Source: Myxococcota bacterium (GTDB taxonomy: Bacteria > Myxococcota_A > UBA9160 > UBA6930). Taken from it: DNA of 64,000 bases. The stretch is from NCBI GenBank assembly GCA_028277885.1, contig JANQFK010000053.1:1-64000 (forward strand), in the 5' to 3' direction. The notes below the pieces were generated by a model, which was given only the letters and a program-made list of their open reading frames with translations, had not been told where the DNA came from and ran no database searches. Numbering within the stretch: position 1 is the first letter of the stretch; the number at the start of each line of letters is the position of its first letter. The translations under genes and the position numbers were made by a program. This document shows positions 5,798 to 37,097 of the stretch, piece by piece.

Positions 5798-8700
5798 ATG
5801 AAGGGGGAGGTCCGCATCGCGCGCGGTGCGCGCGCTGCCGAAGCCGTGGTGCTGGAGACCCTCCGCGCCCACGCGGCCGCGGTGCGCGCGGAGCCCGACC
5901 AGCCCGGGCGTCTTGCGCGCCCGCTCCACGTGGTGGTGCCGTCGCGCAGCCTGCGCAACCACCTCGCCGAGGCGGCGGTGCGCAGCGCCGGCGCTCTCGC
6001 CGGGGTGTCGATCCAGACCCTCCACGGCCTGGCGCACTCCATCCTCGAGCGCTGCGGCGAGTCGCTGCCCGAGGGCGAGGCGCTCGTTCCGGTGCTGAGC
6101 CGGCGCGTGGCCCGCCGGGAGCCGGCGCTCCGCGAGGCCCTCGACGGGCTCGAGGACGGCTACGCCGCCGTGGCGGGCTGCGTCTCGGACCTCCTCGACG
6201 CGGGCCTCGAGCGCGCCTCGGCCGAGGCCATCGACGAGCTGCTGGGCGAGGAGGTGCGCGGCGCCTCGGGGGCCCGGGCGCGCGCGGTGGTGCGCACCGC
6301 GGCGGGCGTCGCGCAGGAGCTCGCGGCCCTGGGGCTCGAGCCGCGCTCGGGGCTCTTCCGGCGCGCGCGGGAGCAGCTCGCCGAGGATCCCGCCCGCGCG
6401 CTGCCCGGCGAGGTGCTGGTGCACGGCTACGCGGACGCCACCGGGGTGCAGGCCGACCTGATCCACGACCTGCTGGTGTTCTCCGGCGCGCGGGTGGTGC
6501 TGGACCGGCCACCGGACCCCGCCCACCCCGAGCGCGAGGACCTCGGCGCGCGCTTCGTCGAGCGTCTCGAGACGCGGCTCGCGCTGGGCGCGCCCGTCGC
6601 CGGGGAGCCGCTCCTCGACGCTCCGGCGCCCGAGCCGCCCGCACCCGAGCTGCTCTGCGTGGCGGGCGTGCACGGCGGGGCGCGCGCGGTCGCGGAGCGG
6701 ATCCACGGGCTGCTCGCGTCCGGCGTGGCGCCCGAGCGCATCGGGGTGGTGGCCCGCCAGCTCGAGCCCCACGCGACGGCGCTGCGTCTCCACCTGAAGC
6801 GGCGGGGGGTTCCCTTCGCCGGGGCTCCCGGTGCGACGGGGCCGGTGGGCCCCGGCGGCCGGCGCATCCGCGCGCTCCTCGACCTGCTGGCGCGCCGCGA
6901 GCAGGCCGCGACGGATCGCTGGCTCGACGCCCGGAACGATCTCACCGCCGCCGTCCGCAGCGAGCTGCGCCTCGGCTTCCACACCCTGGGCGCGGCGCGC
7001 CTGGTGGACCTCGCCGGCTTCGACGTGGCCGCGCGCCCGGGCGAGGAGGCGGGCCTGCGGCTGCCCGTTCCCGAAGGGCTCGAGGACGACCCGGGCGAGC
7101 GACCGCGCCGCCGCCGGCTCGGGCGCCAGCGGCTCGAGGCCGCCGTCGCCGCCGCGGGCGAGCTCGAAGCGCACCTGCGGGGCTGGCTCTCCGCCCGCGA
7201 CCTCGCCGCGCACCGCCGCGCGCTGGATCGGTTGGTGGGCCTGCTCGGGTGGGGCGAGGACGCGCCCGGGCGGGCGGAGCTGGTCGAGGCGGCGGAGCGC
7301 CTGGGCCGGGCACTGCCGGCCGCGCTGCCCCTCGACTTCGAGGAGTTCCGCCTGCTCGCGGAGCGCGCTCTCGAGGGCCGGGGCCGGGTCGAGCTCGGCG
7401 GCGCGGGCGCGGGGGTGGCGATCCTCTCGGTCACCGACGCCCGGGCGCGCTGCTTCGAGCACCTCTTCGTGCTCGGCCTCGAGCGCGACGGCTTCCCGCG
7501 CATCGTCGCCGAGGATCCGCTGCTCCCCGACGCGCTGCGCTCGCGCATCGAGACGCTGCTGCCCGACGTCCCGATCAAGCGGCGCGGCCACGACGAGGAG
7601 CGCCACCTGTTCGCCCAGCTCGTCTCCTCGAGCCCCCGGGTCACCCTGGTGTTCCAGAGCGTGGACGACGACGGGCGCGAGCGCAGCCCGTCCCCCTTCG
7701 TCGAGCGCATCCGTCTGGCCCGGGGCGGCGGCCCCGTGCCCCACGCGCCGTCGCCCCTCGATCCGGACGCCGACGGGCCCTTCGACGCCTTCGAGGAGGC
7801 GCTGCGCGCGGGTCTCGCGGGGGGCGAGCGCCGCCTCGCGGCGCTGCTGCCCGCGGCGCTGGGGGAGGGGCGGGAGCGGCTGGGCCTCCCCGGCGCGGAG
7901 GACGTCCTCGGCGGGGTCGGCGAGGCGCGGCGGCGCGTGCTGCGCGAGTTCGAGCGCGCGCCGGGCGGCGACCTCGGCCCCTGGTTCGGGTTCCTGGGCC
8001 GCCGCAGCGCGGCCGCCGAGCCGCTCTGGGTGACCCGCCTGGAGGCCCTGGCGTGGTGCGCCTGGCAGGGCTTCCTGTCCCGGAGCCTGGGGCTCGAGGC
8101 CGTGCCCGACGCCCGGGCGGAGCTGCCCCAGCTGACGCCGCTCCGGCTGGGGCTCGTCGTGCACGGCGTCCTCGAGACCATCGCGCTCGACGCGGGCGTG
8201 CCGCGCAAGGTGCCCCTCGAGTCCCTCGTCGCTGCGCGGCCCCATCGCGTTCCGTGGCCCGACGCCGCCGCCGTGGAGCGGAGGCTCGAACGGGCCGCGG
8301 CCGACGTCGTGCGGGAGCACGGGATCGGGCTGCGCGGCTTCGCGCGCCTGCTGGCCTCCGCGTCGCGTCCGCTGCTCGAGCGCATCCGCGACCTCGACTG
8401 GGGGCGGGAGGGCGTGCGCGCCGACGTGGTCGGCGTGGAGATCGAGGGCCGGGCCCCGTTCGCACTGGACGGCGAGGCCCGCGAGCTCTTCTTCCGCGCG
8501 GACCGCGTGGATGCCGGCGACCCCGCGAGCCGGGAGCTGCGCCTCACCGACTACAAGGTGGGCCGCCTCGACAGTACCGCCCGGGCGCCGGACGCCCGGG
8601 CCGAGGCCCTGCGGCGCGAGATCGCCCAGGGTCGCAAGCTCCAGGCCTTCGCGTATGCGGCCTCGGGGGGCGCAGGCCGGGAGGGCCGCTACGTCTTCGC

Positions 8701-9022
8701 GCGCTCGAAGCTCGGCGACGAGGGCGAGGCCCTGGGGCTGCGCGCCGACGACGCGGAGGCCGCCGAGGCCTTCGCGAACGCCACCGCGACCCTCCAGCGC
8801 GCCTGGGAGGCCGGGAGCCTCACGCCGCGGCTGCTCGCGAAGGGCCTGCGCGAGGCGCCGAACGCCTGCGAGCGCTGCGAGGTGCGGGAGGCCTGCCTCC
8901 AGGGAGACAGCGGTGCGCTGCGCAGGCTGCGCGGCTGGCTCGAGGAGGCACCGGGCCGCGGCGAGTCCGGCGCCGAGCAGGCCCTGCGCGCCCTCGCCGC
9001 ACTGCCCGAGGCCGGGTCGTGA
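5798..9022 (+). CDS. addB: AddB-like subunit of an AddAB-type helicase-nuclease
   Basis: This 1074-residue protein reads as the AddB partner of the adjacent AddA. An N-terminal inactivated helicase-like region (LHVVVPSRSLRNHLAE, then GVSIQTLHGLAHSILE) leads to a C-terminal PD-(D/E)XK nuclease domain with LTDYKVG (Asp918, Lys920). Four cysteines, Cys754 (ALAWCAWQGF) and Cys1024, Cys1027, Cys1033 (ACERCEVREAC), fit the iron-sulfur cluster that staples the AddB nuclease domain. A canonical Walker A motif is not evident. With AddA it would resect double-strand ends and load RecA. The gene overlaps nothing, and addA starts 10 bases after its stop. The start ATG has GCGGGG upstream, a weak ribosome site. 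Confidence 0.88.
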   Translation: MKGEVRIARGARAAEAVVLETLRAHAAAVRAEPDQPGRLARPLHVVVPSRSLRNHLAEAAVRSAGALAGVSIQTLHGLAHSILERCGESLPEGEALVPVLSRRVARREPALREALDGLEDGYAAVAGCVSDLLDAGLERASAEAIDELLGEEVRGASGARARAVVRTAAGVAQELAALGLEPRSGLFRRAREQLAEDPARALPGEVLVHGYADATGVQADLIHDLLVFSGARVVLDRPPDPAHPEREDLGARFVERLETRLALGAPVAGEPLLDAPAPEPPAPELLCVAGVHGGARAVAERIHGLLASGVAPERIGVVARQLEPHATALRLHLKRRGVPFAGAPGATGPVGPGGRRIRALLDLLARREQAATDRWLDARNDLTAAVRSELRLGFHTLGAARLVDLAGFDVAARPGEEAGLRLPVPEGLEDDPGERPRRRRLGRQRLEAAVAAAGELEAHLRGWLSARDLAAHRRALDRLVGLLGWGEDAPGRAELVEAAERLGRALPAALPLDFEEFRLLAERALEGRGRVELGGAGAGVAILSVTDARARCFEHLFVLGLERDGFPRIVAEDPLLPDALRSRIETLLPDVPIKRRGHDEERHLFAQLVSSSPRVTLVFQSVDDDGRERSPSPFVERIRLARGGGPVPHAPSPLDPDADGPFDAFEEALRAGLAGGERRLAALLPAALGEGRERLGLPGAEDVLGGVGEARRRVLREFERAPGGDLGPWFGFLGRRSAAAEPLWVTRLEALAWCAWQGFLSRSLGLEAVPDARAELPQLTPLRLGLVVHGVLETIALDAGVPRKVPLESLVAARPHRVPWPDAAAVERRLERAAADVVREHGIGLRGFARLLASASRPLLERIRDLDWGREGVRADVVGVEIEGRAPFALDGEARELFFRADRVDAGDPASRELRLTDYKVGRLDSTARAPDARAEALRREIAQGRKLQAFAYAASGGAGREGRYVFARSKLGDEGEALGLRADDAEAAEAFANATATLQRAWEAGSLTPRLLAKGLREAPNACERCEVREACLQGDSGALRRLRGWLEEAPGRGESGAEQALRALAALPEAGS

Positions 9023-9032
9023 GGGAGGCTCG

Positions 9033-12000
9033 ATGAGCGCCGCCCAGGCCGACGCCCGCGCGCGTCGCATCGCCCAGCGGGGGTTCGCGACGCCGCTCGT
9101 GCTCGAGGCCGGCGCGGGCACGGGGAAGACCGCCGTGCTGGTGGCGCGGGTGGTGGCCTGGTGCCTCGGGCCCGGCTGGGAGCGCAACGCGGCGCGGCTC
9201 GCCGACGCGCCCGAGGATCGCGTCGCCGCCGAGACCTTGCGACGCGTGGTCGCCATCACCTTCACCGAGGCGGCCGCGGCGGAGATGGAGGCTCGCGTCC
9301 ACGACGCCCTGCTGCAGATCGAGGGGGGCGCGCTTCCCATCGGGCTCGACGAGGACGCGCTGGCCTCCCTCGGCGCGGAGGTGCGCAGCGCACGGGCGCG
9401 CTGGCTGGTGGCGAGCCTCGACCAGCTCGGGGTGCGCACGATCCACGCCTGGTGCCGGCGCCTGCTCGCCGCCCACCCCCTCGAGGCCGAGCTGCACCCG
9501 CGCTTCGACGTCGACGCCGACGGGCGGCGCCAGCGCGCGGTGGTGCGCGAGGTGCTGGAGCGTCGCCTCGCCGAGGCCTACGAGGGCGAGGACCTGGCCG
9601 ACCACCTGGCCCTGGCCCTCGAGAACCTCGGGCCGGACCGCATCGAGGAGGCGCTGGTCTACCTGGTCGAGCAGGGCGTGCCCGCCGAGGCGCTCGCCCG
9701 CGAGCCCTTCGACTCGGAGGCCCTGGAGGCCCTCCGCGCGCGCTTCCGGGAGGCCTGCGCGGAGCTGCTCCGGGCCGGCGGCCCGGACCTCCGCGGCCTC
9801 TCGCGCTCGCCCCGCGCTCGGGAGCTGGTGGAGCTCGCCGTCGCCGCCGACGAGCGCCTCGGCGACGCCGCGCCGGCGGAGCTCCCGCCGCTGGTCGAGA
9901 TCGCCGCGGGCTTCGAGGTCCCCCACCGCAAGCTCCTCGGCGAGTGGGCGCGCGGCCGCCTCGCCAAGGAGGTCGAGGCCGCGGTCGGCGACCGCCAGGC
10001 CGCCTTCGCGGCGGCGGCCGGCGTTCTCCAGCTGCGCCTCGCCCACCTGGCGCGCCTGGAGCCGGAGTCCCTCGCGCGGGCCCGCCGTGTGCTCGGTCCG
10101 CTCCTCGCCGAGGCGAGCCGGGAGCTGCGCGCGCGGGGGGTGGAGAGCTTCGACGCGCTGCTCCAGGACGCCTGCCGGCTGGTCGGGAGCTCCGCGGCGG
10201 CGCGCATCCGCGGCGAGATCGACCAGCTGCTGGTGGACGAGTTCCAGGACACCGACGGAACCCAGTGCGAGATCCTGCGCCGCCTGGTGCTGCGCGCGCC
10301 CGCCGAGGAGCGCCCCGGGCTCTTCCTGGTGGGCGACCCCAAGCAGTCGATCTACGGCTGGCGTCGCGCCGACCTGGCCGCCTGGTACGACTTCGTGGCG
10401 GAGGTGGAGGCCGCGGGCGGCGAGCGGCATCCGCTGGTCGTGAACTTCCGCTCGGTTCCCGCGGTGCTGGGCGAGGTGGAGCGCCTGGTCGCGCCCGTGA
10501 TGGAGGAGCGGCCGCGCGTGCAGCCCCGCTTCCAGGCCCTCGAGGCGTGTCCGCGCCTGGCGGCCGAGCCCGGCTTCGTCGCCGGCGGGCGCGCTGCCGT
10601 CGAGCACTGGGTCTCCTGGGTCTGGGATGCCGAGGCGGGGCGGCGCGCCCCGGTGCGCAGCCGGGACGCCACGGAGCTCGAGGCGCGCGCCATCGCGGCG
10701 GACGTGGCGGCGCTGAACCGCGACCACGGCGTGGCGTGGAACGAGGTCGCGCTCCTGCTGCGCTCCCTCGGCGAGCTCGACGTCTACCTGGGCGAGCTGC
10801 GCGCGGCGGGGGTCCCCTACGTGGTGGAGCGCGACCGCACCTACTACCAGCGCCGCGAGGTGATCGAGGCCCAGGCGCTGGTGCGCGCCGTGCTGGATCC
10901 GCTCGACGCCGTCGCCCTCGTGGCCCTGCTGCGCTCGGCGTGGGTGGGGGTGCCCGACGCGGCGCTGCCTCCGCTCTGGCGCCAGGAGCTGCCGAGCCGC
11001 ATGGCGGGCGTCCACGACGCGCGGGACGGCACGCGCCGCGAGATCGCGCGCTGGGTGACGGCCGCCGCCCGGGCGATGCCCCGGGACGTGCCCGGCCTGG
11101 ATCGTGTCGAGGGCTGGGAGCACTCCGCCGTGGCGGCCCTCGAGGCCGTGGGGGCGCTGCGGGAGGCCTTCGATCGCGAGCCCGCGGACCGCTTCGTCGA
11201 GCTGCTGCGCGGGGCCCTCGCCAGCGAGCCCAGCGAGGCCGCCCGCTACCTCGGGGGCTACCGGCTCGCCAACCTCGACCGCTTCTTCCGCGACCTCGTC
11301 GAGGCCCTCGAGGAGACCGGCGGTGATGCGTCGGCGGTGCTGGCCCACCTGCGGCGCGCGGTCACCGACGAGCGCGAGGCCGAGGAGGGCCGGCCCCGCG
11401 ACGCCCGCGATCGCGCGGTGCACGTGACCACGATCCACAAGGCCAAGGGGCTGGGCTTCGGCCACGTCTACCTCGCCCAGATGCACAAGGGCGAGGGGCG
11501 CGACGACGCCCAGGCGCCGCGCGCGGCGCTGCGCGCGGGCCGCCTCGAGTACGCGCTCTTCGGGTGGCCCACCCCGGGCTTCGACCTGGCGCGGGAGGCC
11601 GAGGGGACGGTGCGTGCCGCCGAGCGCGTGCGCCTGCTCTACGTGGCCACCACCCGGGCCCGGGACCGCCTGGTGCTGTGCGGTGCGCCCCAGGAGCGCG
11701 GGGGGGCCAGCTTCGCCGCGCTCGCGCGCCCGCGCTGCGCGGAACTCGACCTTGAGGCGTGGATGGGCGAGCTCGCCGCGCGGCAGGAGCCGGCCCGGGT
11801 CGACGCCGAGGGCGTGCGCTGGCGCTTCCCCGCCCTCGACGCCTCCCTCGCCGCCCCCGTGGAGCGCGACGCCCCCCGCGACGAGCGCTGGGACCGCGAC
11901 GCCACCCTGGCCTCGATCGGGCGCCTCGCCGCCGCCCGCGCCCGGGCGCGCGAGCACGAGGCGCGGCCCTTCTCGGAGCCCGCCTCGGCCAAGGAGGCGC

Positions 12001-12578
12001 CCGGGGAGGAGCGGCGCCCCCCGGACGCCGGCGCGCGGGAGGCCGCGATGCTGGCCGGGGTCGCGCTCCACGCGGCCCTCGAGCACCTCGACCCCCTGGC
12101 GGGCGTCGAGGACCAGCGCGCGGTCGGGCGCGAGCGGATCGCGCGCGTGGTCGCGGAGGCCGGGTCGCCCGAGCTGCGCGAGGACGCCCAGGGGCGCGCC
12201 GTCGAGGAGCTCGAGCGGTTCCTCGGCGGTCCGCTGCGGGACCGGCTGCGGGCCCTCGCGCCCCACGTCGTGGCCCGGGAGCTGCCGGTGCTGCTGGCTC
12301 CCGACGCCGACGCCCGCGCGGTGGGCTTCCTGAGCGGCAAGCTCGACCTGGTCTACCGCGACGGGGCCGGGGCCGAGGCCGCCTGGGTGGTGGCCGACTA
12401 CAAGACCGACCGCGTGGAAGGCACCACGGAGACGCTCCAGCGCGCCGCCGGCTACCGGCGCCAGGGGGCGATCTACACCCGTGCCCTGCGCGAGGCCCTG
12501 GCGCTCCCCCGGGAGCCCCGCTTCGAGCTCTGGTTCATCCACTCCGGCCAGATCCACACGGTGCCTGCCGCCCCCTGA
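9033..12578 (+). CDS. addA: AddA-like UvrD-family helicase/exonuclease
   Basis: This 1181-residue superfamily 1A helicase has a C-terminal nuclease. The ATP site is EAGAGTGKT (Walker A at 26-33) and motif II is VDEFQDT (Asp402, Glu403). Motif III is GDPKQSIYGWRRAD, motif V is TIHKAKGLGF and motif VI is LYVATTRARDRL. The nuclease domain ends the protein with ADYKTDRV (Asp1122, Lys1124) and QGAIYTRAL. Length and domain order match AddA/RecB-type enzymes of double-strand break repair. The frame extends upstream inside addB to 8511, but ATG 9033 is preceded by GGGAGG and begins exactly where the family begins. The addB-addA order with a 10-base gap indicates one operon. Confidence 0.94.
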   Translation: MSAAQADARARRIAQRGFATPLVLEAGAGTGKTAVLVARVVAWCLGPGWERNAARLADAPEDRVAAETLRRVVAITFTEAAAAEMEARVHDALLQIEGGALPIGLDEDALASLGAEVRSARARWLVASLDQLGVRTIHAWCRRLLAAHPLEAELHPRFDVDADGRRQRAVVREVLERRLAEAYEGEDLADHLALALENLGPDRIEEALVYLVEQGVPAEALAREPFDSEALEALRARFREACAELLRAGGPDLRGLSRSPRARELVELAVAADERLGDAAPAELPPLVEIAAGFEVPHRKLLGEWARGRLAKEVEAAVGDRQAAFAAAAGVLQLRLAHLARLEPESLARARRVLGPLLAEASRELRARGVESFDALLQDACRLVGSSAAARIRGEIDQLLVDEFQDTDGTQCEILRRLVLRAPAEERPGLFLVGDPKQSIYGWRRADLAAWYDFVAEVEAAGGERHPLVVNFRSVPAVLGEVERLVAPVMEERPRVQPRFQALEACPRLAAEPGFVAGGRAAVEHWVSWVWDAEAGRRAPVRSRDATELEARAIAADVAALNRDHGVAWNEVALLLRSLGELDVYLGELRAAGVPYVVERDRTYYQRREVIEAQALVRAVLDPLDAVALVALLRSAWVGVPDAALPPLWRQELPSRMAGVHDARDGTRREIARWVTAAARAMPRDVPGLDRVEGWEHSAVAALEAVGALREAFDREPADRFVELLRGALASEPSEAARYLGGYRLANLDRFFRDLVEALEETGGDASAVLAHLRRAVTDEREAEEGRPRDARDRAVHVTTIHKAKGLGFGHVYLAQMHKGEGRDDAQAPRAALRAGRLEYALFGWPTPGFDLAREAEGTVRAAERVRLLYVATTRARDRLVLCGAPQERGGASFAALARPRCAELDLEAWMGELAARQEPARVDAEGVRWRFPALDASLAAPVERDAPRDERWDRDATLASIGRLAAARARAREHEARPFSEPASAKEAPGEERRPPDAGAREAAMLAGVALHAALEHLDPLAGVEDQRAVGRERIARVVAEAGSPELREDAQGRAVEELERFLGGPLRDRLRALAPHVVARELPVLLAPDADARAVGFLSGKLDLVYRDGAGAEAAWVVADYKTDRVEGTTETLQRAAGYRRQGAIYTRALREALALPREPRFELWFIHSGQIHTVPAAP

Positions 12579-30047: not shown

Positions 30048-32090
30048 ATGCCCGACCCGAATCGACGCCGCGCGATCCTCACCGGGCTCGTTGCCCTCGG
30101 GATCCTGGCCGCAAGCCCGGCCGGGGCCGGAACCCCGCCGGTCTCCGCGGGCGATCTCGCCGAGCTGAGCCTGGAAGCGCTGATGGACCTCGAGGTCACC
30201 TCGGTCTCCAAGAAGGCCAGCAAGCTCTCGGACTCGCCGGCCGCGATCTACGTCATCACCAACGAGGACATCCGCCGCTCCGGCGCGACCAGCATCCCCG
30301 AGGCCCTGCGCATGGTTCCGGGCGTGCAGGTGGCCCAGATCTCCGCCAACCGCTGGGCCATCAGCGCGCGCGGCTTCAACGGCGAGTTCGCCAACAAGCT
30401 GCTGGTGCTGATCGACGGCCGCAGCGTCTACACGCCCCTCTTCTCCGGCGTCTTCTGGGACGTCCAGGACGTGATGCTCGAGGACATCGATCGCGTCGAG
30501 GTGATCCGCGGGCCCGGCGCGACCCTGTGGGGCGCCAACGCGGTGAACGGCGTGATCAACATCATCACCCGCACCGCGGAGGAGACCCAGGGAGGCCTCG
30601 TCAGCACCGGCTTCGGCAGCGAGGAGCGCGGCTTCGGCTCCTTCCGCTGGGGCGGCGAGGCGGCGGAGGGCCTCCACTACCGGGTCTACGGCAAGTACTT
30701 CGACCGCGACTCCTTCAAGGACATGAACGGCAACAACGCCCGGGACGAGTGGGAGGTCACTCGCGGCGGCTTCCGCATGGACTGGGACGTCGACGAGGAC
30801 GACCTCCTCACGTTCCAGGGCGACTTCTACCGGGGCGAGGTCGGCGAGCGCCACCTCACCGTGGACGCCCTGGTGCCGGCCCCGGCCACCACCCTGCGCA
30901 ACGAGGACGTGGACATCGAGGGCTGGAACGTGCTGGGTCGCTGGACCCACACCTTCTCGCCGACCTCCGAGGGAAGCGTCCAGTTCTACGCGGACCGGAC
31001 CAAGCGCGACATCGAGTTCGCGTCGGAGGCCCGGGACACCCTGGACCTCGACCTGCAGCACCGCTTCGGCGTGGGCGACCGCCACGACGTGGTCTGGGGC
31101 GGCGGCTTCCGCTGGACCAAGGATCGCACCCAGGACAGCCTGCGCGTCCACTTCACCCCGGAGCAGCGCCGCGACAGCCTGCTCAGCGCCTTCGTCCAGG
31201 ACGAGATCGAGCTGATCGAGAACCGGCTCTCCTTCACCCTGGGCTCGAAGTTCGAGTACAACGACTACACGGGGTTCGAGTACCAGCCCAGCGGGCGCCT
31301 GCTCTACAAGCCCCACGAGCACCACACGCTCTGGAGCTCCGTGGCCCGGGCCGTGCGGACGCCCTCGCGGGCCGACGACGACGTCTCCCTGGTGCAGGAC
31401 ATCGCGCCCCCGGGCGGCCCGCCGCTGTTCTTGGGCACGGACCAGATCATCCAGCTGGACGGCAACACGGACATCACGTCCGAGCGGATGCTGGCCTACG
31501 AGGCGGGCTACCGGTACATCCCGTCGCCCCGGTTCTCCGCGGACCTCGCGCTCTTCTACAACGACTACTCGAACCTGCGCAGCGTCGAGGGCGTGGGGGC
31601 GGACTTCGTCACCGCCGCGCCGAGCGTGATCGTCCTCAGCACCTTCGGCAACAACTTCAGCGGTCGCGCCTACGGCGCCGAGCTGGCCAGCCAGTGGGAG
31701 GTGCGCCCCTGGTGGCGGATCAGCGGCAGCTACTCCTTCATCAACCTCGACCTGAACGCCGAGAGCGACTCCGCGGACGTGACCACCGAGATGGGCGAGG
31801 AGGGCAACGTCCCGACCCACATGTTCCACCTGCGCTCCTTCGTGGACCTGCCGCGCAACTTCGAGTTCGACACGCTGCTCTACTACGTGGAGAACCTCTC
31901 CCAGGGCGACGTCGAGAGCTACGTGCGCGTGGATGCCCGCCTGGGCTGGCGGGCTCGCGACGACCTGCGCCTCAGTCTGGTGATGCAGAACCTGCAGGAC
32001 AGCCGCCATGCGGAGTTCAACGACACGCTGCTCTGGCCGTCCAGCGAGGTCGAGCGAGCCGTCTACGGAAAGCTGGAGTGGACGTTCTAG
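30048..32090 (+). CDS. TonB-dependent outer membrane receptor (plug plus barrel)
   Basis: This 680-residue outer-membrane receptor starts at ATG 30048, with a strong AAGGAGG 7 bases upstream. A cleavable signal peptide spans about residues 1-27 (RRRAILTGLVALGILAASPAGA). The plug domain starts at LSLEALMDLEVTSVSKKASKLSDSPAAIYVITNEDIRRSGATSIPEALRMVPGVQV and runs to about residue 170. The 22-strand beta-barrel follows, ending in aromatic SEVERAVYGKLEWTF with terminal Phe. The start of the mature protein (LTELSLEELM-like) matches a receptor subgroup that lacks a classic TonB box and is often found next to YfiR genes and sensor kinases. Substrate unknown; it may work as a signal receptor rather than a nutrient importer. 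It overlaps the YfiR gene by 13 bases. Confidence 0.93.
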   Translation: MPDPNRRRAILTGLVALGILAASPAGAGTPPVSAGDLAELSLEALMDLEVTSVSKKASKLSDSPAAIYVITNEDIRRSGATSIPEALRMVPGVQVAQISANRWAISARGFNGEFANKLLVLIDGRSVYTPLFSGVFWDVQDVMLEDIDRVEVIRGPGATLWGANAVNGVINIITRTAEETQGGLVSTGFGSEERGFGSFRWGGEAAEGLHYRVYGKYFDRDSFKDMNGNNARDEWEVTRGGFRMDWDVDEDDLLTFQGDFYRGEVGERHLTVDALVPAPATTLRNEDVDIEGWNVLGRWTHTFSPTSEGSVQFYADRTKRDIEFASEARDTLDLDLQHRFGVGDRHDVVWGGGFRWTKDRTQDSLRVHFTPEQRRDSLLSAFVQDEIELIENRLSFTLGSKFEYNDYTGFEYQPSGRLLYKPHEHHTLWSSVARAVRTPSRADDDVSLVQDIAPPGGPPLFLGTDQIIQLDGNTDITSERMLAYEAGYRYIPSPRFSADLALFYNDYSNLRSVEGVGADFVTAAPSVIVLSTFGNNFSGRAYGAELASQWEVRPWWRISGSYSFINLDLNAESDSADVTTEMGEEGNVPTHMFHLRSFVDLPRNFEFDTLLYYVENLSQGDVESYVRVDARLGWRARDDLRLSLVMQNLQDSRHAEFNDTLLWPSSEVERAVYGKLEWTF

Positions 32091-32632
32091 ACGCGGACGC
32101 CGAAGGGCGCCCGGGCGCCGCACGAAGCAGCAGCCTCATCCTGGTTCTCGGCCTCGCGGCCGGGATGCTGGGCGCCAGCGGGCCCGGCGAGTACCAGGTG
32201 AAGGCCGCCTTCCTGTTCAACTTCGCGAAGTTCGTGGAGTGGCCGGGCGGCGCCATGGCGTCCGGACGCGAGTTCTCGATCTGCGTCGTCGGCGACGGCG
32301 ACGTCTCCGAGGAGCTCGAGGCCGTGGTGACGGGTCGCGACATCGACGGCAAGCCCGTGGCGGTGCGGACCCTGTCGGACCCGACGGCGGGCGCGGGCTG
32401 CCAGATCCTCTTCGCCATCGACGACGCCGCCGCCGCCGAGGCCCGCGACAGCTCGCCTCCCGGGACGCTCACCGTGGGGCAGAGCCAGGGCTTCGCGCGC
32501 CAGGGCGGGATGATCAACTTCATCCTGGTCGACAAGAAGGTGCGCTTCGAGGTCAACAAGCGGAGCGCCGAGACGGCGGGCCTCTCGATCAGCTCGCACC
32601 TCCTGAAGCTCGCCCACGACGTGTACGAGTAG
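32078..32632 (+). CDS. yfiR: YfiR-family (DUF4154) periplasmic regulator
   Basis: This 184-residue exported protein starts at GTG 32078, overlapping the end of the receptor gene by 13 bases, which implies translational coupling. A signal peptide covers about residues 1-36 (LILVLGLAAGMLGASG). The mature start YQVKAAFLFNFAKFVEWP is the YfiR hallmark. It is followed by FSICVVGDGDV, GCQILFAIDD, GFARQGGMINFILVDKKVRFEVNKRSAETAGLSISSHLLKLAHDVY, also diagnostic. In Pseudomonas YfiR binds and represses the diguanylate cyclase YfiN through its periplasmic part. Here the next gene encodes a sensor with the same kind of periplasmic domain but a chemotaxis-type output, so YfiR may control it. Two cysteines (positions about 69 and 109) could form the known disulfide. 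Confidence 0.93.
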   Translation: MDVLDADAEGRPGAARSSSLILVLGLAAGMLGASGPGEYQVKAAFLFNFAKFVEWPGGAMASGREFSICVVGDGDVSEELEAVVTGRDIDGKPVAVRTLSDPTAGAGCQILFAIDDAAAAEARDSSPPGTLTVGQSQGFARQGGMINFILVDKKVRFEVNKRSAETAGLSISSHLLKLAHDVYE

Positions 32633-32647
32633 GGGGCGAAGCCCGGG

Positions 32648-34678
32648 ATGTCCGCCTTCCGCGACCGCTCGCTCCGTCGCAAGCTCACCACCACGGTCAT
32701 GCTGACCACGGGGTGCGCGCTGCTGCTCGCCTTCGCGGTGCTCACCGTGAACGAGGTGGTGACGGCGCGGCGCTCCCTGGTCGAGGGCGCCCAGACCCTG
32801 GCTGGCGTGGTCGGGATCAACAGCACCGCCGCCCTGATGTTCGACGATCCGGCGGCGGCCGAGGAGACGCTCTCCGCCCTCGCGGCGGACCGCAACCTCG
32901 AGGGCGCGGCGCTCTACCGCACCGACGGATCGCTGTTCGCCTCCTTCGTCCGGAAGGAGGGCAGTGCGGTGCCCGACCGGCCGGGCCGCGGGCAGGCCTT
33001 CGGCGACGGCTCCCTCGAGGTCTTCCACGAGATCGTGGTCCAGGAGGAGCCCATCGGGACCCTCTACCTGCGCTCGAGCACCCGGGCCATGATGGCCAAC
33101 ATCCGCATCTTCGTGGCGGTGCTGTGCGTCGTCATGGCCGTCGCGATGACCCTCGCCTCCCTGGTGGCGACGAGCCTGCGCCGCGCGGTGCAGGGGCCCA
33201 TCGACGCCCTGGTGGAGCGCTCCGAGGCCATGGCCCGCGGCGACCTCGGCACCGAGGTTCCCGTGGTCAGCCGGGACGAGATCGGCGTGCTGGCGAGCAG
33301 CTTCAACAAGATGGGCCAGAGCCTCCGGGCCGTGGTGGTCCAGGTCCGCCACAACATCCGCGACCTCGCCGGCGTGGGCGAGACCCTGGAGACGACCAGC
33401 GCGAACGTCGTGGCCGAGACCCACCGCCAGGGCAGGACCATCGAGTCGGCGGCCGAGTCCATCGGGCGGGTGACGAGCTCGATCCACGAGGTGAACTCCG
33501 GAGTCAACGAGCTCGCCGAGACGGGCCGTGGCACGTCGCGCTCCATCGCGAAGATGGGCGGCTCCATCGCCCGGGTCGCGGGCCGCATGGACGAGCTGGC
33601 CCCCGCCATCGAGACCACCTCCACGGCCATCGGCCAGCTCACGGCGAGCGTCGAGGAGATCGCCGACAACGTGGGCACGCTGAACGACGCCACGGCCACC
33701 ACCGAGCGCTCCCTCACCGAGCTCACCGCCTCGGTGCGCAGCGTCCGCGACAACGCCCAGCGCAGCCACGAGCTCTCCCAGGACGCCCACCACGAAGCCG
33801 AGCGCGGCATGCGCTCGGTGAACGACACCATCGCGTCGATGCACGAGATCGAGACCAGCTTCAAGCGGCTCGAGGAGATCGTGACCCGCCTCGCCGAGCG
33901 CTCCAACGAGATCGGCGAGATCGTGAAGGTGATCGACGAGGTGGCGGACGAGACCCAGCTGCTCTCGCTGAACGCGGCCATCATCGCCTCCCAGGCCGGC
34001 GAGCAGGGCAGTGCCTTCGCGGTGGTGGCCGACGAGGTGAAGCGCCTCGCCGAGCGCACCGCGCTCTCCACCCGGGAGATCGCCGACCTGGTCCAGGGCA
34101 TGCGCTCCGAGTCCGGCAATGCGGTCCGCGCCATGGCGGACGGCGCCGAGACCGTGGAGCGGGGCGTGGGACGCTCCCAGGAGGCGGGCGACCGGCTGCG
34201 TGGGATCATGGAGAGCTCGTCGCTCTCGAAGTCCATGGTGGACGAGATCGCCGGGGCCACCGAGAGCCAGGCCGCGGCCCTGGTGCGGGTCGAGGAGGCC
34301 ATGTCCCAGGTGCGGGCCTTCGTGGAGCAGATCCACCGCTCCACCCAGGAGCAGAGCCGGGCCAGCGGCGAGATCGCCAACATGGTCGAGCAGGTGCAGG
34401 CCCTGGGGAACGAGGTGAAGACCGCCACCGTGGCCCAGACCCGGGAGAGCGGGCAGATCACCGAGGCCATGGAGGGCGTCACGCGCATGATCGACCGCAT
34501 CTCCCAGGCCACCGAGGAGCAGCGCCGGGAGAGCCAGCAGATCGACCGCGCCCTCGGCGTGTTCCGGGAGCTGGCCGACGAGAGCGTGCGGCGCGTCGCC
34601 GAGCTCAAGCGGGTGACCGCGACCCTGGTGGAGCGCTCCGAGCAGCTCGACGCGGAGATCGGACGCTTCACGGTCTGA
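32648..34678 (+). CDS. CHASE8-HAMP-MCP signal transducer
   Basis: This 676-residue inner-membrane receptor has transmembrane helix 1 at about 14-34 and a small periplasmic CHASE8-like domain at about 35-150 (AQTLAGVVGINSTAALMFDDPAAAEETLSAL, as in YfiN). Helix 2 lies at about 150-175, HAMP at 175-230, and a long helical cytoplasmic signalling region runs to 676. The tip reads ADETQLLSLNAAIIASQAGEQGSAFAVVADEVKRLAERT (about 432-470), close to the canonical chemoreceptor hairpin but with Ile-Ala-Ser in place of Glu-Ala-Ala, so coupling to CheA/CheW may differ. YfiN uses a GGDEF output with this sensor; here an MCP output is used. It is third gene of the TonB receptor-YfiR operon. Confidence 0.93.
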   Translation: MSAFRDRSLRRKLTTTVMLTTGCALLLAFAVLTVNEVVTARRSLVEGAQTLAGVVGINSTAALMFDDPAAAEETLSALAADRNLEGAALYRTDGSLFASFVRKEGSAVPDRPGRGQAFGDGSLEVFHEIVVQEEPIGTLYLRSSTRAMMANIRIFVAVLCVVMAVAMTLASLVATSLRRAVQGPIDALVERSEAMARGDLGTEVPVVSRDEIGVLASSFNKMGQSLRAVVVQVRHNIRDLAGVGETLETTSANVVAETHRQGRTIESAAESIGRVTSSIHEVNSGVNELAETGRGTSRSIAKMGGSIARVAGRMDELAPAIETTSTAIGQLTASVEEIADNVGTLNDATATTERSLTELTASVRSVRDNAQRSHELSQDAHHEAERGMRSVNDTIASMHEIETSFKRLEEIVTRLAERSNEIGEIVKVIDEVADETQLLSLNAAIIASQAGEQGSAFAVVADEVKRLAERTALSTREIADLVQGMRSESGNAVRAMADGAETVERGVGRSQEAGDRLRGIMESSSLSKSMVDEIAGATESQAAALVRVEEAMSQVRAFVEQIHRSTQEQSRASGEIANMVEQVQALGNEVKTATVAQTRESGQITEAMEGVTRMIDRISQATEEQRRESQQIDRALGVFRELADESVRRVAELKRVTATLVERSEQLDAEIGRFTV

Positions 34679-34743: not shown

Positions 34744-34769
34744 TCAACCCGAGCGCAGCTCCGGCCGAA
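34744..34769 (+). promoter_or_regulatory. Sigma28-like promoter for the OLD-like ATPase gene
   Basis: TCAACC (34744-34749), 14 bases, GCCGAA (34764-34769). A GGGAGG/CCTCCC hairpin (34781-34800) lies in the predicted leader, before ATG 34816. Confidence 0.5.
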
Positions 34770-34815
34770 AACTCATGGTGGGGAGGGCCGTCGTCCTCCC
34801 TCGAAGAGGTACGGC

Positions 34816-36831
34816 ATGAGGCTCGAGAAGTTCCGGGTCACCAACTACCGAAGCGTGAAGGACAGCGGCTGGATCGGGGTCGGCGACCAGACGGCCCTGG
34901 TGGGCCGGAACGAGAGCGGGAAGAGCAACCTGCTGCTCGCCCTGCGCAGCCTGAAGCCGCCGGAGCGCCTCGAGCGGCTCTGCGTCTCCTCGGACTTCCC
35001 GGCCGACCGCTCGCGTCTCGACTACTCCGAGGAGCTCGACGTGGTGCAGACCGTGTGGTCCTTCACCGCCGCCGAGCGCGAGCACCTCGCCACGCTCTTC
35101 CCCCGCGCGCGCCACGTCACCCGGGTCGAGATCGGCCGCGGCTTCGAGCCGCTGCGCTGGGTGCGCTTCGCGGACATTCCCGCCGCCGAGGCGCCCCTCG
35201 CCCAGGCGAAGGATCTGTTCACCCGGCTCGGCACCGCGACCGGCGACGAGGCCGTGGAGGAGCAGACCGTGGACGCCGGCGTGCGTCGCGCCCTCCAGGA
35301 CCTGGAGTCCGCCATCGGCCGCACCTCCCCGGACCCGAGCGCCTGGGCCGAGGGCGTGCGCCACGCCCTCGCGGACCTGCGACCGCCCATGGACGCCCAC
35401 GCCCCGGGCCTCGCCGAGGGCGCCCGGGACGCGCTGGCGGAGATCTCGGAGCTCGCCGACCAGGTCGCCAACGACACCGACGCCGAGCACGCCGCCAAGG
35501 ACTGGGTGCTCCAGCAGCTGCCCACCTTCCTCTACCTGGACGACTACGCCGAGATCCAGGGCCACCAGGACCTGGCCGCCTTCCTCGAGCGCCGCCGGGA
35601 GAACCGCCCGGCCGACGGCGACGTCTACTTCGAGAAGCTCCTCAGCGTTGCGGGGCTCGACCCGAGCGCCGTGGAGACCCTGCTCCACGCCGACCACGAG
35701 GCGCGTCGCCAGATCGCCAACCGGGCCGGCGCCGTGGTGACCCGCAAGCTGCGCGAGCTGTGGAACGAGCGGGCGCTGAAGATCCGCTTCAACCTCGACG
35801 GGAGCCACTTCAACACCCTCGTCTCGGACCCGAACTCCCTCTACGACGTGGAGGTGAACCTGAACGAGCGGAGCCGCGGCTTCCGCTGGTTCTTCTCCTT
35901 CTACGTGACCTTCGCCGCCGACGCCAAGAGCGGCTCCACCGAGAACATGATCCTGCTGCTGGACGAGCCGGGCCTCTACCTGCACGCCCTCGGCCAGCGA
36001 GACCTGCTGAACCACTTCAAGTCGGACTTCCCGAACCAGATCCTGTACTCGACCCACTCGCCCTTCCTGGTCCCGCCGGACGACCTCTCGGCGGTGCGCA
36101 CCGTGACCATCTCCGAGGAGGAGGGCACCACGGTGAGCGACCGGCCCACCGGGGACGAGAAGACCCTGTTCCCGATCCTCCACTCCCTCGGGATGGAGGT
36201 GTCGCGGGGGCTGTTCGGCGAGGGCTGGCACCTCGCGGTGTCGGAGCTGACCGACTACTGGTTCCTGCGCGCGATCTCCGACTTCGTGCGCTCGCGCTCC
36301 GGGCGCTGCCTGCCCCGGGACCTCCACATCACGCCGGCCGGCGGCTGCGCGCGGCTTCCCTACATGGTGGCGCTGCTCTCGGGCCAGGCGCCGCGGGCCC
36401 TGGTGCTGCTCACCGACGAGCCCGGCGTCCTGCGCAGCAGCTCCGCGTCCGAGGTGGCCAAGCTGCTGCCGGAGCGGAACCTGGTGCGAGTGGCCGATGC
36501 CCTCGACGAGCCCCTGGGCGAGGGGGCCGGCGGCGCGGACGTCGAGGACCTGATCGACCCGCAGCTCTACGACCGCTTCGTGCGCTACTGCTGGCGCAGC
36601 GAGCTCAAGGAGCGGAAGCTCGAGCCCGACGCCAGCGTGCCCCGGGTGGTGGAGCGCTACGCCAGGGCCCTGGCCGCCCTCGACATCGAGTTCAACCGCG
36701 CGCGCCCGGCGCGGCTCTTCCTGCGCGGCATGGGCAAGAACCCCACCAGCGTTCTGCCCAAGTCGACCCGGGAGCGCTTCGAGCGGCTGTTCGAGCGGAT
36801 CCACGAGCGGGTCCGGGAGCTCGGGGGCTGA
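34816..36831 (+). CDS. OLD-family-like AAA ATPase with degenerate TOPRIM-like end
   Basis: This 671-residue cytosolic protein begins MRLEKFRVTNYRSVKDSGWIGVGDQTALVGRNESGKSNLLLALRSL, with Walker A GRNESGKSN at about 35-43. A coiled insertion follows. The Walker B/signature region is ENMILLLDEPGLYLHALGQRDLL (about 376-398), then the sensor histidine ILYSTHSPFLVPPDD (about 411-425). A C-terminal part has SELTDYWFL, HITPAGGCARLPYMVALL and ALVLLTDEPG, the order of an OLD TOPRIM nuclease, but with Thr-Asp-Glu-Pro where DxD is expected. OLD ATPases include phage P2 Old and GajA of Gabija. No GajB helicase is adjacent, so defence is only one option. A FliA-like promoter argues for a link with motility signalling instead. 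Confidence 0.8.
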   Translation: MRLEKFRVTNYRSVKDSGWIGVGDQTALVGRNESGKSNLLLALRSLKPPERLERLCVSSDFPADRSRLDYSEELDVVQTVWSFTAAEREHLATLFPRARHVTRVEIGRGFEPLRWVRFADIPAAEAPLAQAKDLFTRLGTATGDEAVEEQTVDAGVRRALQDLESAIGRTSPDPSAWAEGVRHALADLRPPMDAHAPGLAEGARDALAEISELADQVANDTDAEHAAKDWVLQQLPTFLYLDDYAEIQGHQDLAAFLERRRENRPADGDVYFEKLLSVAGLDPSAVETLLHADHEARRQIANRAGAVVTRKLRELWNERALKIRFNLDGSHFNTLVSDPNSLYDVEVNLNERSRGFRWFFSFYVTFAADAKSGSTENMILLLDEPGLYLHALGQRDLLNHFKSDFPNQILYSTHSPFLVPPDDLSAVRTVTISEEEGTTVSDRPTGDEKTLFPILHSLGMEVSRGLFGEGWHLAVSELTDYWFLRAISDFVRSRSGRCLPRDLHITPAGGCARLPYMVALLSGQAPRALVLLTDEPGVLRSSSASEVAKLLPERNLVRVADALDEPLGEGAGGADVEDLIDPQLYDRFVRYCWRSELKERKLEPDASVPRVVERYARALAALDIEFNRARPARLFLRGMGKNPTSVLPKSTRERFERLFERIHERVRELGG

Positions 36832-36839
36832 GCGTCGGC

Positions 36840-37097
36840 GTGCGCCGTCGCGCCTGGGGCCGCGCGCTCGTCGCCGTGCTGGCGGTGGTGCCGCTCACGG
36901 CCTGCCTGCTGCTTCCCCGGGGCCGGCCCGTGGCGGTGGACAACCGCGCCGGCTCCTTCTGGACGGGCAACGGCGTGCTGCTCGAGCGGAGCGACGACGG
37001 GAAGCACTGCCGCGTCGCGGTGCGCGGCTCCTCGCTCCTCGTCGAGAAGAAGTGGGTGCCCTGCCGCTACGTCCACGACCGCAGGCTGCAGCCCTAG
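36840..37097 (+). CDS. Small lipoprotein of unknown function
   Basis: This 85-residue protein starts at GTG 36840, 8 bases after the ATPase stop. The lipobox is textbook: VLAVVPLTAC with lipidated Cys22. The mature chain is short (63 residues) and contains VAVDNRAGSFWTGNGVLLER and two cysteines (CRVAV, PCRYVHD) that could form a disulfide. It is probably transcribed with the OLD-like ATPase, an odd pairing of a cytosolic ATPase with a cell-envelope lipoprotein. No family recognised. The frame is open further upstream, but the lipoprotein signal decides the start. It converges on HDOD-GGDEF with only 9 bases between stops. Confidence 0.72.
   Translation: MRRRAWGRALVAVLAVVPLTACLLLPRGRPVAVDNRAGSFWTGNGVLLERSDDGKHCRVAVRGSSLLVEKKWVPCRYVHDRRLQP

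What the first reader, a model, noticed from the sequence alone, without database searches (positions are those of the whole stretch)
34744..37097. Stand-alone OLD-like ATPase with a degenerate TOPRIM and a coupled lipoprotein
Seen: OLD-type Walker A, Walker B and His motifs with a C-terminal region that reads like TOPRIM but has TDEP where DxD is expected, followed within 8 bases by a tiny lipoprotein gene, under a sigma28-like promoter. Known: OLD proteins act in phage defence (P2 Old, GajA). No GajB helicase neighbours. Inference: the setting argues for a different role, perhaps a surface- or motility-linked ATPase, or a defence gene under motility control.
Basis: partly seen in the sequence, partly recalled or inferred. 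Interest (0 to 1): 0.5.

Follow-up and report, generated by a model that had tools for sequence, protein, structure and literature searches.

The report
OLD-like ATPase with broken nuclease site
This bacterial gene encodes a relative of anti-phage OLD proteins that keeps its ATP-using motor but has lost key residues of its DNA-cutting site, a change shared with its closest relatives, which suggests that the protein now works without cutting DNA.

Summary
Window 34816-36831 encodes a 671-aa ABC ATPase-TOPRIM protein with intact Walker A, Walker B and His motifs. Its TOPRIM lacks two metal-A acids: Ser 476 and Thr 533, where all 62 of the 67 aligned homologues not set aside as altered have Glu and Asp. 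Metal-B residues remain, and the predicted fold is still OLD-like (VIA-align Z 10.6). The nearest relatives (two more genomes of the class, two from Venteria's order) group with the window and also lack Asp 533. The window's ATPase core is about as conserved as in intact relatives; its TOPRIM has drifted. Intact relatives occur on plasmids, in viral-database contigs and in defence settings, including the psu-int slot of a P4-like satellite. The altered clade sits alone among ordinary chromosomal genes. The lipoprotein is real but no dedicated partner: its family occurs in 18 of 96 other genomes searched, none with this ATPase nearby. The sigma28-like site exists; its use is unproven. Best reading: a nuclease-impaired OLD descendant that works through its ATPase, in nuclease-independent defence or a co-opted host role. 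New variant of a known kind.

The parts
34744..34771 (+). sigma28-like promoter site, TCAA-N16-GCCGAAAA
   Evidence: 2 mismatches; 2 in window, 0.15 expected; 4 strict matches in the whole genome, 0 in the reversed-pattern control; function unproven
34816..36831 (+). ABC ATPase-TOPRIM protein of the OLD group, 671 aa, TOPRIM metal-A site lost
34903..34929 (+). Walker A GRNESGKSN (residues 30-38)
   Evidence: K36 in 59 of the 59 unaltered rows that have a residue there (3 gaps)
35953..35973 (+). Walker B LLLDEPG (residues 380-386)
36052..36063 (+). His motif THSP (residues 413-416)
   Evidence: replaced by TQSP and TQAP in L026 and L027
36151..36828 (+). C-terminal TOPRIM plus helical region (residues 446-671)
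   Evidence: structure (pLDDT 87.3); VIA Z 10.6 to 6njx and 6nk8; Pfam OLD-like_TOPRIM in 33 of 37 aligned C-terminal regions, none in the window's own
36241..36243 (+). Ser 476, where 62 of 62 unaltered relatives have the TOPRIM Glu
36412..36414 (+). Thr 533, where 62 of 62 unaltered relatives have the first Asp of DxD
36253..36255 (+). Asp 480, retained putative metal-B ligand
   Evidence: role by analogy with BpOLD E404 and TsOLD D381 (PMC6755086, PMC7049728)
36544..36546 (+). Glu 577, retained putative metal-B ligand
   Evidence: role by analogy with BpOLD E508 and TsOLD E480
36840..37097 (+). 85-aa lipoprotein gene, adjacent but of an independent family

Best explanation
Shown: the gene encodes an ABC ATPase (no signal or membrane segment seen, so taken as cytosolic) fused to an OLD-type TOPRIM-plus-helical C-terminal region. 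The ATPase motifs are intact, and two of the three metal-A acids of the TOPRIM are gone. Inferred: the protein descends from a mobile OLD-type anti-phage nuclease. It still binds and hydrolyses ATP, dimerises through its ATPase heads, and uses the TOPRIM scaffold as a nucleic-acid-binding or regulatory module rather than as a DNA-degrading enzyme. Most likely it acts in nuclease-independent phage defence, as reported for E. coli YbjD, whose Toprim domain is dispensable.
For: Metal-A Glu and Asp are invariant in 62 of 62 unaltered homologues and lost here. The ATPase core is 54-61% identical to eight intact relatives (intact pairs 59-67%), while the TOPRIM is 32-39% (intact pairs 47-62%). OLD fold kept. 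Full-length tree: window, L026, L027 and L005 form a clade, support 99/94. The ATPase-only tree still groups window, L026 and L027, 97/98. Intact relatives occur on plasmids, in 38 viral-database contigs (partial and distant rows included), in the psu-int slot of an E. coli P4-like satellite (slot described in PMC9122126, passages read), and next to Hma, type I restriction or GmrSD-like genes. YbjD: Toprim dispensable, ATPase domain essential (PMC13261556, first of two parts read).
Against: No defence gene is known beside the window gene or the other altered-clade members; they sit among ordinary chromosomal genes. GC3 equals that of its neighbours (0.979 against 0.969-0.989), so it is probably a long-term resident. 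L026 and L027 have lost the H-loop His, so the ATPase may be changing too. Metal-B residues remain, so nicking is not excluded: metal-A mutants of BpOLD and TsOLD still nick plasmids (PMC6755086, PMC7049728, passages read). Cran1 has Leu at the 533-equivalent position and is an active nickase (PMC12796447, passages read).
Confidence: 0.45

Rival explanations
1. The protein has been co-opted from defence to a host role, such as chromosome or DNA-repair maintenance, driven by the ATPase alone, as Cran1 serves the cell cycle in Sulfolobales.
For: The altered clade is solitary and chromosomal, among ordinary genes. Composition equals that of neighbours. In Cran1 the ATPase, not the nuclease, is critical, although its nuclease residues are mostly kept. 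The window also carries an AddAB-like pair.
Against: Presence is very patchy: 3 of 90 genomes of the class and 8 of 377 of the phylum, unlike a housekeeping gene. The congener of G007 in the sample (G010) lacks it. No conserved partner was seen.
Confidence: 0.3
2. It is still a nuclease, perhaps a nickase, working through the retained metal-B site and shifted acids (Glu 477, Asp 534, Glu 535).
For: Asp 480, Asp 575 and Glu 577 are retained. Metal-A mutants of BpOLD and TsOLD keep nicking. Cran1 lacks the first Asp but nicks.
Against: Single metal-A substitutions abolish P2 Old killing in vivo. Metal-A positions vary freely across the clade, and Glu 577 is also lost in L005.
Confidence: 0.12
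3. The gene is decaying and has no function.
For: Catalytic residues lost, TOPRIM diverged, patchy presence.
Against: Open frame without internal stops in 3 of 3 class members, intact Walker motifs, window ATPase core about as conserved as in intact relatives, loss shared by a clade.
Confidence: 0.08
4. A surface- or motility-linked ATPase that works with the downstream lipoprotein under sigma28 control.
For: 8-base gap; sigma28-like site; FliA/WhiG-type sigma factor present; chemoreceptor gene upstream.
Against: The lipoprotein family lives apart from the ATPase in 18 of 18 loci examined, and G007 and G084, which carry the ATPase, have no clear lipoprotein homologue (G084 none, G007 only E 0.565). 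Lipoprotein and ATPase would lie on different sides of the inner membrane.
Confidence: 0.05

Closest known systems
Thermus scotoductus OLD (Class 1, PDB 6P74)
   Same: Stand-alone gene; ABC ATPase plus TOPRIM; best Foldseek hit, E 1.1e-10; VIA Z 17.2 over residues 2-670, rmsd 15.4
   Different: Has the full metal-A set E377, D431, D433 and cleaves DNA (PMC7049728, passages); PDB chain 528 aa against 671 aa here
BpOLD / XccOLD C-terminal regions (Class 2, PDB 6NK8, 6NJX)
   Same: Best structural match of the window's C-terminal region: Z 10.6, 165 residues, rmsd 3.6-3.7
   Different: Those keep E400, D455, D457; window has Ser, Thr, Glu. No helicase gene adjoins here
YbjD/OldB of E. coli
   Same: Solitary OLD gene; its reported phage phenotypes do not need the Toprim domain (PMC13261556, part 1 read)
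   Different: YbjD keeps the Toprim acids, 552 aa; not compared by sequence here
Cran1 (class 5 OLD, Sulfolobales)
   Same: ATPase, not nuclease, matters for its role; first DxD Asp replaced (by Leu) (PMC12796447, passages)
   Different: Active nickase, essential, archaeal, in a potential operon with a membrane protein gene; not compared by sequence here
HEC-04 / IbfA, ATPase-TOPRIM phage-defence proteins
   Same: ATPase fused to TOPRIM; HEC genes lie among Hma genes, and two distant relatives of the window protein also adjoin Hma-type genes (PMC12111858 passages)
   Different: IbfA is 518 aa with a TOPRIM domain; not compared by sequence here

Membership tests
OLD family nuclease | N-terminal ABC ATPase with Walker A, Walker B and H-loop | tested here: met
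   PADLOC Old best hit 61.8 bits
OLD family nuclease | C-terminal TOPRIM fold | tested here: met
   Predicted fold matches OLD C-terminal regions at Z 10.6; Foldseek alone gave nothing below E 0.1; Pfam OLD-like_TOPRIM hits 33 of 37 aligned C-terminal regions but not the window's own
OLD family nuclease | Catalytic Glu and DxD (metal A) | tested here: not met
   S476, T533, E535 in the window; Glu and Asp in 62 of 62 unaltered rows at 476 and 533
OLD family nuclease | Metal-dependent DNA cleavage | not testable with these tools
   needs purified protein
Gabija (GajA) | Adjacent UvrD-like helicase GajB | tested here: not met
   Neighbours are a chemoreceptor, a lipoprotein and HDOD-GGDEF
[quoted passage not shown]
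   No shared partner seen in the altered clade
Class 1 OLD | Class 1 architecture without the Class 2 helical insert | tested here: inconclusive
   C-terminal model fits Class 2 regions (Z 10.6) slightly better than Class 1 6P74 (Z 9.0)
PARIS | ATPase (AriA) and TOPRIM (AriB) as two genes (fusions are also reported) | tested here: not met
   One fused 671-aa ORF
Retron-linked (Class 3) OLD | Adjacent reverse transcriptase and ncRNA | tested here: not met
   Adjacent genes identified, no reverse transcriptase; ncRNA not searched
sigma28 regulon | Promoter used by FliA-type sigma factor | tested here: inconclusive
   Site and sigma factor present; use not testable

The most novel reading that the evidence does not exclude
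A lineage of OLD proteins that has shed its nuclease and runs as a pure ATPase. It would be a natural counterpart to the laboratory result that the TOPRIM is dispensable, used by chromosomes of unrelated bacteria (this phylum and the gammaproteobacterial order of Venteria) for a host function or for a non-cleaving form of phage defence.
Probability: 0.5. Interest if true: 0.65.

Novelty: new variant of a known kind. Interest (0 to 1): 0.42.

Why it matters
It is an open question how OLD ATPases act when the nuclease is not needed (YbjD, Cran1). A natural clade that keeps the ATPase while the metal-A site has gone gives a direct test object, with intact sister proteins as controls. The survey also exposes an unnamed two-gene cassette (a 160-aa protein with a hydrophobic C-terminal stretch plus the intact ATPase-TOPRIM) on plasmids and in a P4 defence slot.

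Tried and rejected
Lipoprotein coupling: rejected on distribution. Functional analogy of the lipoprotein with the upstream 160-aa protein of the enterobacterial and Vibrio cassette: rejected as unsupported, since the sequences and position differ; that upstream protein gave no match in 30 genomes including the window's own, though the tool notes that an empty answer without a positive control shows nothing. Foldseek on the C-terminal model alone was uninformative (best E 0.13, generic Rossmann folds); VIA-align on the same candidates ranked OLD domains first. A profile of the C-terminal regions found no PDB sequence at E up to 1. The window's own C-terminal region has no Pfam hit. NCBIfam gave nothing above cut-off. 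L032 was first counted as altered, but it lies in another clade and keeps Asp 533 in the alignment. L119 also lacks the Asp, in a distant clade. The joint origin of all five altered proteins is only moderately supported without the TOPRIM (79/94, 76% of bootstrap trees). Rows left out before counts: L009 and L012 (short partial matches) and three fragments under 500 aa (L096, L097, L100) before the tree; L118 and L119 were found later and are not among the 67. Literature searches for degenerate or pseudonuclease TOPRIM OLD proteins (listings seen) found no description of such a clade; that library lacks most subscription papers.

Full report
What is there. The ORF at 34816-36831 encodes 671 aa. 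Pfam finds AAA_15 (61.2 bits) and AAA_21 (50.3), PADLOC's best hit is Old (61.8 bits) with AriA and GajA behind it, and the best PDB sequence is the Thermus OLD protein 6p74 (E 0.00059). It is the only match in its genome. Its neighbours are a CHASE8-HAMP chemoreceptor upstream, the small lipoprotein gene 8 bases downstream, then a convergent HDOD-GGDEF gene and an ion channel gene. No helicase, reverse transcriptase or other defence gene adjoins it.

Relatives. Matches are sparse near home: 4 of 97 relatives at E up to 0.001, own genome included, one of them covering only residues 1-45; 3 of 90 genomes of the class; 8 of 377 of the phylum. Elsewhere the family is mobile: 88 of 72,556 plasmid records, 44 of them covering at least 80% of the query, 38 IMG/VR loci, but 1 of 50,697 phage records. 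Eight loci came from the species genomes, among them Microvirga, Phreatobacter, Vibrio and Candidatus Venteria.

Settings of relatives. I read 17 regions from the annotated collections; two carry no annotation (L023, L067), so 15 could be judged. In Enterobacter, Klebsiella, E. albertii, Vibrio and E. coli the ATPase follows a conserved gene of about 157-169 aa by about 7 to 11 bases. That protein ends in a hydrophobic stretch, read by eye, and has no Pfam or PADLOC hit where tested. In E. coli MB20 the pair lies between a phage polarity suppression gene and an integrase gene next to ssrA. Rousset et al. describe exactly this psu-int slot of P4-like satellites as a reservoir of antiviral systems (PMC9122126, passages read). 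More distant relatives adjoin HmaB/HmaC-type genes (Microbacterium, and by annotation Acidovorax), a type I restriction plus GmrSD cluster (Gemmobacter), a type I specificity gene (L028) and a GmrSD-like gene (L031). None of the 15 regions lists a UvrD/GajB-type neighbour, though I did not scan them with a GajB model. Other regions showed plasmid transfer, toxin-antitoxin or metal-resistance genes. E. coli itself has a match in 1 of 5,426 genomes at DNA level.

The TOPRIM. Across 67 aligned proteins of at least 500 aa, I set five aside as altered after seeing the motif table: the window, L026, L027, L005 and L032. In the remaining 62, Glu 476, Asp 533 and Glu 577 (window numbering) occur in 62 of 62; Asp 480 in 61, Glu in one. 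The window has Ser 476 and Thr 533, and keeps Asp 480, Glu 535, Asp 575 and Glu 577. From papers read in passages, Glu 476 corresponds to BpOLD E400 and TsOLD E377, residue 533 to D455 and D431, residue 535 to D457 and D433 (metal A); residue 480 to E404 and D381, 577 to E508 and E480 (metal B) (PMC6755086, PMC7049728). The correspondence is by motif and my own reading; I did not superpose active sites. In those papers the metal-A triple mutants lose DNA degradation wholly (Bp, linear DNA) or 12- to 15-fold (Ts) but still nick, and single metal-A mutations abolish P2 Old killing in vivo. So loss of efficient DNA degradation is likely, and loss of nicking is not certain. Single substitutions in BpOLD had no discernible effect, and Cran1, with Leu at the 533 position, is an active nickase, so Asp 533 alone is not decisive; the window has lost Glu 476 as well.

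Fold. AlphaFold2 gives pLDDT 85.9 for the whole protein and 87.3 for residues 446-671. Foldseek's best PDB hit of the whole is 6p74; VIA-align gives Z 17.2 over residues 2-670 but with rmsd 15.4, so domain placement differs. The C-terminal model by itself was inconclusive in Foldseek, but VIA-align ranks OLD C-terminal regions first: 6njx and 6nk8 at Z 10.6, 165 aligned, rmsd 3.7 and 3.6; retron Eco2 9.6; 6p74 9.0. The scaffold is therefore kept although the site is not.

One lineage. In a 67-row maximum-likelihood tree the window groups with L026 and L027 (100/97) and then with L005 from Candidatus Venteria (99/94), inside a clade whose other members have intact TOPRIMs. A search of 42 genomes of Venteria's order added L118, also with Thr at 533 but with Glu 476 kept. 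In a tree from the ATPase part only, the class trio holds at 97/98 and all five at 79/94. So all five lack Asp 533; Glu 476 is lost in the window, L026 and L005, kept in L027 and L118. L026 and L027 have also lost the H-loop His, which the window keeps. L005 and L027 sit on long branches.

Constraint. The window's ATPase core (residues 226-445) is 54.1-60.9% identical to eight intact relatives, close to the 58.9-67.3% among eight intact pairs. Its TOPRIM region is 31.8-39.4%, against 47.2-61.6%. This does not look like a dying gene: the frame is open, the Walker motifs are intact and codon composition matches the neighbours (GC3 0.979). The altered-clade genes sit among ordinary chromosomal genes with no shared partner seen (the GC-rich L027 region was not resolved into genes).

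Lipoprotein and promoter. The lipoprotein family occurs in 18 of 96 other genomes at E below 1e-11. In those 18 loci, none of the other nine window genes tested, the ATPase included, matches at E up to 1e-5 (several loci are short). In 8 of the 18 a common neighbour lies near it, which I recognise from recall, not from a call, as a membrane pyrophosphatase. The lipoprotein may be co-transcribed with the ATPase here, but it is not a conserved partner. The sigma28-like site is one of four strict matches in the genome against none for the reversed pattern, and the genome has one FliA/WhiG-type sigma factor above cut-off. The perfect match on contig C12 lies upstream of what looks, by recall, like a type IV pilus ATPase gene. 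This leaves motility-related control possible and unproven.

How it likely works. Shown: fold, motifs, losses, distribution. Inferred: ATP-driven opening and closing of paired heads, with the TOPRIM as a binding or regulatory part. YbjD's phage phenotypes need the ATPase domain but not the Toprim (PMC13261556, first of two parts read), and Cran1's cell-cycle effect needs the ATPase, not the nuclease (PMC12796447, passages). I favour nuclease-independent defence slightly over a co-opted host role, because the gene is so patchy within its class.

Verdict. Part of the interpretation falls: lipoprotein coupling is rejected and motility control is unproven. This is not an OLD nuclease by the catalytic-site test, but it is a descendant of that group and a new variant.

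Noticed in passing
L068 14968-17455; also L019, L020, L022, L024, L003, L007: Unnamed two-gene cassette: a protein of about 157-169 aa with a hydrophobic C-terminal stretch, then the intact ATPase-TOPRIM; in E. coli MB20 it fills the psu-int slot of a P4-like satellite. Good candidate defence system.
   Followed up: partly
window 36840-37097; L041-L058: Small lipoprotein family with conserved GTPVFVD and WSGxGxLxEVSxD motifs and two further Cys, in 18 of 96 other genomes, near a likely membrane pyrophosphatase gene (recalled name) in 8 of 18 loci.
   Followed up: partly
L061 and L063: Distant relatives of the ATPase lie shortly after Hma-type genes (HmaB and HmaC in L061 by PADLOC, DUF1156 and DUF499 in L063 by annotation), like Hma-embedded candidates.
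   Followed up: partly
window 5846-12578: AddB/AddA-like pair (PD-(D/E)XK nuclease and UvrD helicase) 22 kb from the ATPase; P2 Old senses RecBC inhibition, so a functional link could be tested.
   Followed up: no
L027: The G007 homologue is far longer (861 aa from the matched start, open frame 1143), with a low-complexity tail and an insert between ATPase and TOPRIM.
   Followed up: no
L132 around 2000: A perfect TAAA-N16-GCCGATAA site about 100 bp upstream of a gene that looks like a type IV pilus ATPase (by recall), so sigma28-type control in this organism may concern pili.
   Followed up: no
window 30048-34678: Run of TonB receptor, YfiR/HmsC-like (DUF4154) and CHASE8 chemoreceptor genes directly upstream, a likely envelope-signalling operon.
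   Followed up: no
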